A stretch of DNA of 64,000 bases from Puniceicoccales bacterium Verruco_02 (GTDB lineage Bacteria; Verrucomicrobiota; Verrucomicrobiia; Opitutales; Oceanipulchritudinaceae), in NCBI GenBank assembly GCA_001604585.1, contig LVBW01000037.1:514-64513 (forward strand). The letters run 5' to 3'. This document shows, in pieces, positions 20,904 through 23,959 of this stretch (positions are counted from its first letter, which is position 1; every line of letters starts with the position of its first letter). The notes below the pieces were generated by a model. That model did no database searches. It had not been told where the DNA came from and saw nothing but the letters and a program-made list of their open reading frames with translations. A program made the position numbers and the translations under genes.

Positions 20904-20931
20904 TGCTTGAGGTGGCCAAGAATTATTGCTC

Positions 20932-21336
20932 ATGAGACAAGTCGCCGCTCCCGACAAGTTCACCCTCGAAACAGAACTTGGTGATGCCTTCCCGATGTGG
21001 GAGGCCATACTATGCAGAATCGACGCCGTATATGGCCCCCTCTCCCCATACTGGACGCCCTCGAAAGTAGCATTTGGCAAAGTCTGTGTGCTCTGCAATG
21101 GCAAGCGGAACCTCGTGTATCTGACTCCTGAACGAGGAAGCATACTGGCAACCCTCGCGCTGGGAGAAAAAGCCTGCGAAGCGGCGTTCCAAAGTGGACT
21201 GCCTGATGAGGCAAAGACCAACATCGCGAACTCGAAAAAGTATGTCGAAGGCAGATCCGTTCGCATGAATGTCAATGACACGGACGCCCTGTCAGTGCTT
21301 GAACAACTGCTGGTGTTCAAGACCAGATCTTCTTAA
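20932..21336 (+). CDS. DUF3788-like small protein
   Basis: A 134-residue protein that, from memory, resembles the DUF3788 family: a short soluble protein with W..L....D..YGPL-like N-terminal pattern (MWEAILCRIDAVYGPLSPYW), a YLTPERGSILATLALGEKACEAAF core and a KKYVEGRSVRMNVND end. Function is unknown. The ATG at 20932 is chosen over the TTG at 20926. Base composition is closer to neutral than in neighbouring genes. It is separated from the next cluster by about 250 bases. Confidence 0.65.
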   Translation: MRQVAAPDKFTLETELGDAFPMWEAILCRIDAVYGPLSPYWTPSKVAFGKVCVLCNGKRNLVYLTPERGSILATLALGEKACEAAFQSGLPDEAKTNIANSKKYVEGRSVRMNVNDTDALSVLEQLLVFKTRSS

Positions 21337-21583: not shown

Positions 21584-22363
21584 ATGCCAGTATCAGGACG
21601 CGAACTAGCAACCCTCGACTTCGGCAACCTCATCGGAGGTCCGCTCAACGCCGTTGTAGAGGCACAGGCAAAGTCTGCCATCACCACGGCCAACTTCATC
21701 AAGGAAGTGGCCTTCGACAAGGAAGGAAAGGTCGTCAACGTCGATTTCAAGTACAGCCGCAAGAATGACGACGGCAAAGATCAGGAATTCACCCTCACGG
21801 TGCCCTTCCTGACGATGATTCCCATACCGTACATTTCGGTCAAATCGGCCATTGTGGAGTTCAACGCCAAGATAACCTCCACAACCGAGAGCAAGAGCGA
21901 GTCCAACTTCAACACGGAAAACACCCTCTCTGTCAGCTCCGGCTGGTTCGTATCGGCCAAGTTGCAGTCCAAGGTATCCTACCAAAAGAGCAGCTCCGCC
22001 ACCGACAAGGAAGAGCGCACCTACGACATGCACGTCAAGGTCGAGGCCGAGAACGCCGACATGCCCGCGGGCACCGAGCGCATCCTGACGATCCTCGAAC
22101 AGTCCATCTCCGAGCGCAAGGGCAAGACCTTCAAGGGTAGCATCGTCATCGCCACAGGCACAGGCACCGCCCTCACCCTGAGCGACAACCCGGACAAGCT
22201 GGACCCGACCGCCATCAACGGCTCCACCTTCACCCTCACGGGCAAGCAATACAAGATAAGCGCCTGCACCAAAGACGCCACAACGGGCAAGATAAGCATC
22301 ACCGTGGACACTGCCATCACACTGGCAAAGGACACCAGCGTGCTGCTCGACGACGCGGCATAA
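21584..22363 (+). CDS. DUF2589-like protein
   Basis: A 259-residue protein matching, from memory, the DUF2589 family: LATLDFGNLIGGPLNAVVEAQAKSA at the start, then FTLTVPFLTMIPIPYISVKSAIVEFNAKI, and a variable Ser/Thr/Lys-rich region (STTESKSESNFNTENTLSV). The C-terminal third is Thr/Gly-rich and beta-like (ATGTGTALTLSDNPDKLDPT). No signal peptide or membrane segment is seen. The start has one of the few clear Shine-Dalgarno sequences here (AGGAG, ten bases upstream), suggesting strong translation. It heads a three-gene cluster. The family has no established function. Confidence 0.75.
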   Translation: MPVSGRELATLDFGNLIGGPLNAVVEAQAKSAITTANFIKEVAFDKEGKVVNVDFKYSRKNDDGKDQEFTLTVPFLTMIPIPYISVKSAIVEFNAKITSTTESKSESNFNTENTLSVSSGWFVSAKLQSKVSYQKSSSATDKEERTYDMHVKVEAENADMPAGTERILTILEQSISERKGKTFKGSIVIATGTGTALTLSDNPDKLDPTAINGSTFTLTGKQYKISACTKDATTGKISITVDTAITLAKDTSVLLDDAA

Positions 22364-22456
22364 GGCCAATTGTCTTTGGCACAGTACCGGGGCTGAGGCG
22401 GTCCAAACCCGCCGGCAGCCCCGCTTCAAGCGCGCGGACAGGAAAAGGACAAAGGC

Positions 22457-23398
22457 ATGAACGACAAGGAACAGGAACAAAAGCTCTCGGAACTAGTGGG
22501 CGCAATAGTCTCCAGCATCGCACATGCGCGCGGTGTGGCCGATGCCGAAGCCCTGCGTCTTGCCCACATCTACCGGCGCAACGAGCTTCTCAAGGGCCTG
22601 CCAGTGCCTCGCCTGCGCCTGCGAAACATCAACATCAGTCTGCCCCTGCTTATAAGTGGCCTTAGTCCCTCAGAGCCGGGCACGCTGAACACCTCGGCCA
22701 ACATTGCCGATGCCGCCTTCAGGAGCCTGCAAAGAGGCTTCGGCGAGCTGCTCGTAAAGCTGCGCCAGAAGAGCGAAATGCAGAGTCTGCCCGAGGACGA
22801 GCGCAACGAAGCCTGCCTGTACTCGATACTAATCGGTGGCCTGTTCGAGGAATCGAGCAAGGAAGTCCTCACGCTCAAGAAGGAACGCTTCGAGGGTTAC
22901 AAACACGCTTTTACCTCCCGCATCGGAACCGTGATTGACGAGGCGCTCGCCAGCTCCGGCGACGATGTTGCCGCCAGCAGCGACCAGTCCTCCATACAGG
23001 CAGAGGTGGCTGACAAGGTGGCCGAGGCTACGCGAAGGCTGCTTCAGGAGCTGCTTTTCACAAGGCTGCGGGAATTTGTCAGCGCAAGGCAGAAAGACCT
23101 GCCCGAGGCGGAGCAGAAGCCCTTCGACCAGGCTAGGGCAAGGCTGCGCACAGACGCCTTTTTGCGTGGCGAGGACGGCGGCATACTCGTGGATGGCACA
23201 CGCCGCGCCGCGGCAGAGAGCTGCTACCGCCAACAGGCCAAACCGGCGCAAATCCGCGTTATTGCGGGCACCGACAATGTGAAAAACTGCGGTGCAGGGC
23301 CGGAAATGATTACGCGGATAAACATGACTATCCACGAAGAGGGCCTTGAGTGGACCAGTCAGCCCGACGGCGGCGCAGACAGGCTCTGCCCTGAATAG
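22457..23398 (+). CDS. Second protein of the DUF2589-type cluster
   Basis: A 313-residue protein with no family I can name. Its N-terminus (LSELVGAIVSSIAHARGVADAEALR) and the segment VPRLRLRNINISLPLLISGL echo the layout of the upstream DUF2589 protein, suggesting a distant paralogue. The middle is long, helical and charged. The C-terminal 60 residues (QIRVIAGTDNVKNCGAGPEMITRINMTI) look like a small separate beta domain. There is no signal peptide or membrane helix. A purine-rich AAGGACAAAGG precedes the start. It lies 93 bases after the DUF2589 gene and 9 before the next gene. Confidence 0.55.
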   Translation: MNDKEQEQKLSELVGAIVSSIAHARGVADAEALRLAHIYRRNELLKGLPVPRLRLRNINISLPLLISGLSPSEPGTLNTSANIADAAFRSLQRGFGELLVKLRQKSEMQSLPEDERNEACLYSILIGGLFEESSKEVLTLKKERFEGYKHAFTSRIGTVIDEALASSGDDVAASSDQSSIQAEVADKVAEATRRLLQELLFTRLREFVSARQKDLPEAEQKPFDQARARLRTDAFLRGEDGGILVDGTRRAAAESCYRQQAKPAQIRVIAGTDNVKNCGAGPEMITRINMTIHEEGLEWTSQPDGGADRLCPE

Positions 23399-23407
23399 GC
23401 GGCCAAG

Positions 23408-23959
23408 ATGATACACTGCGTCACAATCGACAAATTGGGCCAGAGTCTCGAACAGCTATCCCCCGTCTTGGACAGCTACCGCCGGGGCGACCCTGCCTTC
23501 CCCGCCCTTGCCCTCCACTGGCTGGAGACTACGCACAAGGGACTGTCCAGCCTGCGCCTTAGCGAGCTTAGCGAGCTGGGCACACTTGGAGCCTCCATCA
23601 TAAAGGCGGGCGAGGCGATCCCCGGCCCGGACGGGTTGCCACCGCGCCGCTCTCAGACAAGGGCAAGGCAGAACATCGCAGCCGCCGAAGCTCTGGAAAG
23701 GGCGGAAAGAGTGCTGCGGGACCGCGTTCAGTCAAGCGAGGAAAGGCTGCGTCTTTTCGAGGACAAGCTCTGCGAAGGCATGACTGCCTACATGTTGGAA
23801 AACAGTCTGCCCGAGGGCGGAGGGGAACAGGCCCTGCGCAGGCTCTGGGACGGCCTCTGCGCCTATGCACCGACTAGACCCCTGACGCGCTACCTCTCCG
23901 CCTCGCTGGGATCGACGGACAGGCTCTGCCTCTTGGCCAACATTCTCGGCAGGCTCTAG
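23408..23959 (+). CDS. Third protein of the DUF2589-type cluster
   Basis: A 183-residue protein of unknown family, mostly alpha-helical by composition. It has leucine-rich stretches (LRLSELSELGTLGASIIKAG) and a charged helix (AEALERAERVLRDRVQSSEERLRLFEDK). No signal peptide, membrane segment or catalytic motif is visible. Its start is nine bases after the previous stop, so the two are likely translated together. The C-terminal half is conserved in character (ALRRLWDGLCAYAPTRPLTRYL) but I cannot assign it. Confidence 0.5.
   Translation: MIHCVTIDKLGQSLEQLSPVLDSYRRGDPAFPALALHWLETTHKGLSSLRLSELSELGTLGASIIKAGEAIPGPDGLPPRRSQTRARQNIAAAEALERAERVLRDRVQSSEERLRLFEDKLCEGMTAYMLENSLPEGGGEQALRRLWDGLCAYAPTRPLTRYLSASLGSTDRLCLLANILGRL

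What the first reader, a model, noticed from the sequence alone, without database searches (positions are those of the whole stretch)
21584..23959. Three-gene cluster headed by a DUF2589-like protein
The first two proteins seem to share an N-terminal plan (LxGxxVxxxAxA..., then a strand ending in LPLL or VPFL), while the third is helical and unrelated. Gaps are 93 and 9 bases. None has a signal peptide, membrane segment or catalytic motif. The leading gene has an unusually good Shine-Dalgarno sequence. This looks like a structural assembly of unknown purpose.
Basis: partly seen in the sequence, partly recalled or inferred. Interest (0 to 1): 0.65.

Follow-up and report, generated by a model that had tools for sequence, protein, structure and literature searches.

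The report
Conserved three-gene DUF2589 module, function unknown
This is a small, self-contained set of genes that has travelled together between many bacteria, archaea and (in a two-gene form) phages, and that probably builds a multi-protein assembly which may act on membranes, although nobody has yet shown what it does.

Summary
The three genes are real and form a conserved unit. Protein A (21584-22363) is a full-length Pfam DUF2589 protein (E 1e-28). ORF2 (22457-23398) and ORF3 (23408-23959) match no family. In 388 genomes of the phylum, DUF2589 and ORF2 occur in exactly the same 11. Loci without ORF3 mostly carry a second, short DUF2589 (B) and a zinc-ribbon gene. Phages carry a two-gene form, B then A (78 of 80 loci). 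ORF2's N-terminus is a divergent DUF2589-type segment; ORF3 is unrelated. AlphaFold gives A a long Ala-rich helix and a long beta-hairpin. The hairpin's distal part alternates hydrophobic and polar residues in 66 of 66 sequences and has an aromatic tip in 65. Several phage pairs lie beside holin, spanin or endolysin genes. I favour a hetero-oligomer that engages or perforates membranes, with A the major subunit (0.3). A purely structural cytosolic assembly (0.3) and a mobile phage-host conflict module (0.2) remain open. No library gives a significant match to anything of known function. The claim of an unusually good Shine-Dalgarno is weak.

The parts
21584..22363 (+). Protein A: full-length DUF2589 (PF11655) protein, 259 aa. 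AF2: helix 13-43; strands 52-60, 66-74, 84-109, 133-157; helix 162-173; extra beta domain about 190-259
21908..21982 (+). Codons of the distal amphipathic hairpin of A (residues 109-133, aromatic tip at 121-122)
   Evidence: family-wide alternation 66/66, aromatic tip 65/66; AF2 confidence is low in 105-139
22364..22456 (+). 93-base A-ORF2 spacer with a GC-rich stem-loop (MFE -39.3 kcal/mol, z -1.8); not conserved in the sister genome
   Evidence: spacers of this kind are enriched in stable folds across loci
22457..23398 (+). ORF2: DUF2589-type N-terminal helix and strand, then a helical insertion and C-terminal strands; AF2 mean pLDDT 90.6
23408..23959 (+).

Best explanation
The cluster is a self-contained, horizontally mobile operon for a soluble hetero-oligomeric complex. 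SHOWN: the genes travel together; A, B and ORF2 share a DUF2589-type N-terminus (helix, then strands); ORF3 is exchanged for B plus a zinc-ribbon protein in other lineages; phages carry the minimal pair B-A. INFERRED: A is the major subunit. Its Ala-rich helix packs with the matching helix of ORF2 (or B) into a ring or filament, and its long hairpin, with a conserved amphipathic distal part and aromatic tip, inserts into or docks on a membrane and perforates or remodels it. ORF2 acts as adaptor or cap; ORF3 as chaperone or regulator. In phages this would assist or time lysis or otherwise act on the envelope. In cells it could drive a controlled membrane lesion, programmed lysis or release of contents.
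For: Co-occurrence: 65/67 loci with ORF2, 46/67 with ORF3; identical 11/388 genomes for DUF2589 and ORF2. ORF2-ORF3 gaps median 7 bases. A-ORF2 and A-B homology. AF2 of A: long helix and 25-26-residue hairpin strands. Distal hairpin: hydrophobic/polar alternation in 66/66 sequences, shuffle p<0.05 in 98%, aromatic tip in 65/66. Phage context: GTA_holin_3TM - B - A - lysozyme-like ORF (L045), holin - B - A (L039), spanin-like upstream (L044); an endolysin-like gene 0.9-2.5 kb away in 42/80 related phage loci, with spanin-like or TM coiled-coil genes between, and a homologue 3 kb from the operon in a Rhodothermales bacterium. LytTR regulators in 8 of 83 loci, all within about 4 kb of A, none in an equal stretch further out. 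A-ORF2 spacers fold more stably than control gaps, 53% versus 27% with z<-2, p=0.006, suggesting unequal dosage.
Against: No significant fold match: PDB E>0.4 for A, top entries only loosely resemble pore stems. The hairpin is the least confident part of the model (pLDDT<50). Amphipathic strands also occur in soluble beta-sheets. The hairpin window for the alternation test was chosen after seeing the mean profile. Many phage pairs sit elsewhere (between terminase genes; on the strand opposite the lysis genes). Peptidoglycan-hydrolase closeness in bacterial loci is not clearly above background. Archaea without peptidoglycan also carry the operon. Up to eight paralogues in one cluster look more like a structure than a killing pore.
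Confidence: 0.3

Rival explanations
1. A cytosolic structural polymer or scaffold: A with ORF2, or A with B, polymerises through its Ala-rich helices and beta-sheets into a filament, ribbon or shell with no membrane action.
For: Multi-paralogue arrays (up to eight DUF2589 genes) in Bacteroidales; no signal peptide, TM helix or enzyme motif; long helix plus long strands; one cluster next to RebB (R-body) genes in a Polyangia genome, L059.
Against: RebB is present above cut-off in only 4 of 50 genomes with the module and adjacent in one; no fold match to a known polymer.
Confidence: 0.3
2. A mobile conflict module (moron-type superinfection exclusion or abortive-infection-like defence) that phages and hosts exchange.
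For: Patchy distribution (3/273 genomes of the order); Verrucomicrobiota copies do not form one clade (p-AU 2e-67); insertion at a synteny breakpoint; phage pairs at varied sites; caspase upstream in Runella and subtilase downstream in two Flavobacteriaceae.
Against: No PADLOC match; no enrichment of known defence genes seen among neighbours; strong housekeeping-like constraint; proteases in only 3 loci.
Confidence: 0.2
3. A domesticated phage virion component (structural gene cassette).
For: B-A pair beside capsid, adaptor or terminase genes in some phages.
Against: Placement differs among phages, often at the end of the early operon; hosts lack other virion genes nearby; PHROGs has no such family.
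Confidence: 0.07

Closest known systems
Pfam DUF2589 (PF11655)
   Same: A matches the full model; B and the extra paralogues match it too
   Different: The family has no function. The operon partners, two operon types, phage pair and ORF2 relationship come from this work; the held literature has one passing mention, up-regulated DUF2589-related genes AF0414-AF0417 in Archaeoglobus (PMC3949148)
Beta-barrel pore-forming proteins (aerolysin and binary-toxin translocase type), as an analogy only
   Same: Long hairpin with alternating hydrophobic/polar residues and aromatic tip; such pores appear among the weak fold hits
   Different: No significant structural or sequence similarity (E>0.4); different overall fold; no secretion signal
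Phage holin / spanin / endolysin lysis cassettes
   Same: Genomic closeness in several phages
   Different: No membrane helix and no enzymatic motif; often on the opposite strand; present in archaea and in cellular operons without lysis genes
R-bodies (RebB, PF11747)
   Same: Cytosolic assemblies from small Ala-rich proteins; adjacent in one Polyangia genome
   Different: No sequence relationship found; co-occurrence 4/50 genomes; none found in the window's genome

Membership tests
DUF2589 (PF11655) | Match above the curated cut-off over the full model | tested here: met
   A: 101 bits against cut-off 23, model 2-154 of 154
DUF2589 (PF11655) | ORF2 matches the Pfam model directly | tested here: not met
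   No DUF2589 hit for ORF2; relationship only by profile-profile comparison
Beta-barrel pore-forming proteins | Significant fold similarity to a solved pore former | tested here: not met
   Best PDB E 0.48, TM 0.14
Beta-barrel pore-forming proteins | Conserved amphipathic membrane-spanning-length hairpin | tested here: inconclusive
   Alternation 66/66 over 11+11 residues, aromatic tip 65/66, but pLDDT<50 there
Beta-barrel pore-forming proteins | Membrane insertion and leakage | not testable with these tools
   Needs purified protein
Phage lysis protein | Member of the lysis operon | tested here: inconclusive
   Yes in L045 and L039; opposite strand in the marine group; elsewhere in others
Anti-phage defence system | Match to known defence models | tested here: not met
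   PADLOC none
R-body (RebB) | RebB homology or genetic linkage | tested here: not met
   No RebB hit in the window's genome; linked in 1 locus only

The most novel reading that the evidence does not exclude
DUF2589 defines a new, widely distributed class of two- to four-component membrane-perforating machines shared by bacteria, archaea and phages. A DUF2589 hetero-oligomer inserts amphipathic hairpins from the cytosolic side. Phages would use it to help breach the envelope and cells to trigger controlled lysis, in some lineages under LytTR control or protease (caspase, subtilase) control.
Probability: 0.15. Interest if true: 0.85.

Novelty: categorically new. Interest (0 to 1): 0.55.

Why it matters
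A strictly co-inherited operon spanning bacteria, archaea and tailed phages, with no member of known function, is rare. Defining its partners turns an orphan DUF into a testable complex. If the membrane reading holds, it would be a new way by which cells and phages breach membranes from inside. If the structural reading holds, it is a new cytosolic assembly, encoded also by the gut bacterium Akkermansia muciniphila, where it could be studied.

Tried and rejected
Single-protein scan of viral contigs found nothing; the alignment scan did. The first alignment for the genome scan was too diverse. PDB sequence searches gave no relatives for A, ORF2 or ORF3. Foldseek versus PDB found no significant match for A or ORF2; in viral models only a sequence relative with no name. 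The R-body link was tested in 50 genomes and mostly dropped. Defence database: none. An empty site in a congener was looked for: the two flanking blocks lie on different contigs there, so the cassette sits at a synteny breakpoint but no clean empty site exists. Peptidoglycan hydrolases near bacterial loci (Amidase_2 x3, Muramidase x1 and others) were considered, but the number is about what a genome background would give (my estimate, not computed) and the seeds came from near genes. Literature: one uninformative mention; searches for Akkermansia and Archaeoglobus gene names gave nothing usable.

Full report
OBSERVATION. A is a DUF2589 protein over the full model (E 1e-28). ORF2 and ORF3 match no Pfam, NCBIfam, PHROGs or PADLOC family. 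There is no membrane helix. The genes are under purifying selection (dN/dS 0.10-0.13 against a congener, the same as the lpd neighbour).

CO-OCCURRENCE. In 388 genomes of the phylum, DUF2589 is in 11 and an ORF2 profile hits exactly the same 11. ORF3 is in three of these, plus one marginal hit (E 5.7e-4) elsewhere. A scan of 84,980 species genomes gave 185 relatives, 80 kept as loci. They cover Verrucomicrobiota and relatives, Desulfobacterota, Myxococcota, Gamma-, Beta- and Alphaproteobacteria, Bacteroidota, Chlorobi, KSB1, Anaerolineae, Cyanobacteria, Actinomycetota, Nitrospinota and archaea (Methanoperedenaceae, Methanothrix, Bathyarchaeota, Theionarchaea). After dereplication and requiring 2.6 kb downstream, 65 of 67 have ORF2 and 46 of 67 have ORF3. 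Gaps A to ORF2 have median 78 bases, ORF2 to ORF3 median 7. The rest of the neighbourhood is not conserved, so the unit is self-contained.

ARCHITECTURES. Type I is A-ORF2-ORF3 (this window). Type II is A-ORF2-B-zinc ribbon; the zinc-ribbon gene is found in 17 loci, none of them in the ORF3 set; these include Akkermansia, Bacteroidales, cyanobacteria, Nitrospinota and Rhodospirillales. Bacteroidales clusters hold up to eight DUF2589 paralogues. The phage form is B-A, in 78 of 80 viral loci (the two exceptions begin at a locus end). A, B and ORF2 are related at profile level (A-B E 5e-11; A-ORF2 E 3.9e-5; B-ORF2 E 1.2e-3). These are pairwise values, and the ORF2 match covers only 67 columns.

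MOBILITY. The A tree does not keep Verrucomicrobiota together (p-AU 2e-67). The window's A lies with copies from Desulfovibrio, Desulfuromonas, Kangiellaceae, Methanothrix and Methanoperedenaceae. In a same-genus genome without the cassette, the left block (lpd, DUF3788-like) and the right block (DJ-1, LptC-like, LptA-like) lie on different contigs, so the cassette sits at a synteny breakpoint.

STRUCTURE. AlphaFold2 of A (66 sequences, mean pLDDT 74.7, pTM 0.48) gives a long helix 13-43, two short strands, two strands of 25-26 residues forming a hairpin, and a short helix. ORF2 (mean pLDDT 90.6) has the same helix-then-strand start, a large helical insertion and C-terminal strands. Foldseek finds no significant PDB match for either. 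Family-averaged hydropathy shows the hairpin has a distal part (109-119 and 123-133) that alternates hydrophobic and polar residues, separated from the core by Ser/Thr-rich stems. Alternation is positive in 66/66 sequences, with shuffle p<0.05 in 98%, and an aromatic residue lies at the tip in 65/66. The window of residues was chosen after seeing the profile, and AF2 is uncertain exactly there.

CONTEXT CLUES. In phages the pair lies between a GTA-type holin and a lysozyme-like ORF (L045), after a holin (L039), or after a spanin-like gene (L044). In a large related group of phages it converges on genes that include an endolysin-like protein (phrog_33083, E 1e-15; 42 of 80 loci) and a spanin-like protein. 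These 42 are not independent, and other phages place the pair between terminase genes. A homologue of that endolysin-like protein lies 3 kb from the operon in a Rhodothermales genome. LytTR regulators occur in 8 of 83 cellular loci, all near. A caspase-domain gene precedes A in Runella, and a subtilase follows ORF2 in two Flavobacteriaceae. RebB is adjacent in one Polyangia genome. The A-ORF2 spacer is more structured than control gaps (p 0.006), but not in the sister genome (z 0.09), so the excess of A is only a hint.

READING. Shown: a mobile, strictly co-inherited module with related A, ORF2 and B. Inferred: a hetero-oligomer with A as major subunit. Speculative: membrane engagement through the distal hairpin. 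I put membrane action at 0.3, a purely structural assembly at 0.3, a conflict or moron role at 0.2 and a virion part at 0.07; the rest is unknown. 'Categorically new' is chosen because no library or held paper describes such a system. It rests on the absence of a known relative of known function, not on a demonstrated mechanism.

LIMITS. Genes in the loci were called by a simple script; starts are approximate. No multimer prediction was available. The paper library is incomplete, so an earlier description elsewhere cannot be excluded.

Noticed in passing
window 20926-21336: DUF3788 gene (E 2e-16) between lpd and protein A; a similar gene follows lpd in a congener that lacks the cassette (L136 1917-2327).
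   Followed up: partly
L118 2745-3599: Caspase-domain (Peptidase_C14) gene directly upstream of a DUF2589 gene with a long N-terminal extension and ORF2 (Runella).
   Followed up: partly
L097 11795-13051; L098 11802-13064: Subtilase (S8) gene downstream of A-ORF2 in two Flavobacteriaceae; A carries an extension of about 100 residues.
   Followed up: partly
L059 7038-11782: Polyangia locus with two DUF2589 genes and ORF2 next to a RebB (R-body) gene.
   Followed up: yes
L029 8924-9187; L030 8890-9165; L041 10615-10905: Small family (87-96 aa, ending in a conserved YHIGF-x-R motif) of unknown function immediately downstream of DUF2589 in two plasmids and a phage contig.
   Followed up: partly
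L191 6950-7525 and 41 other viral loci; L095 13032-13628: Endolysin-like family (phrog_3000 / phrog_33083) with a WSAGC motif near DUF2589 in phages and in a Rhodothermales genome; looks L,D-transpeptidase-like by eye.
   Followed up: partly
L049 9959-10816: Viral contig with a truncated DUF2589 gene followed by a protein with a GGGGHIVDNRPAEITQRK motif, reminiscent of contractile-injection-associated proteins (from memory).
   Followed up: no
G370:C1 about 1206700-1208900; L024; L129: All eight sampled genomes of one genus (Akkermansia-like by size and by L129) carry the type II cluster; in the two loci read (L024, L129) a LytTR gene precedes it.
   Followed up: partly
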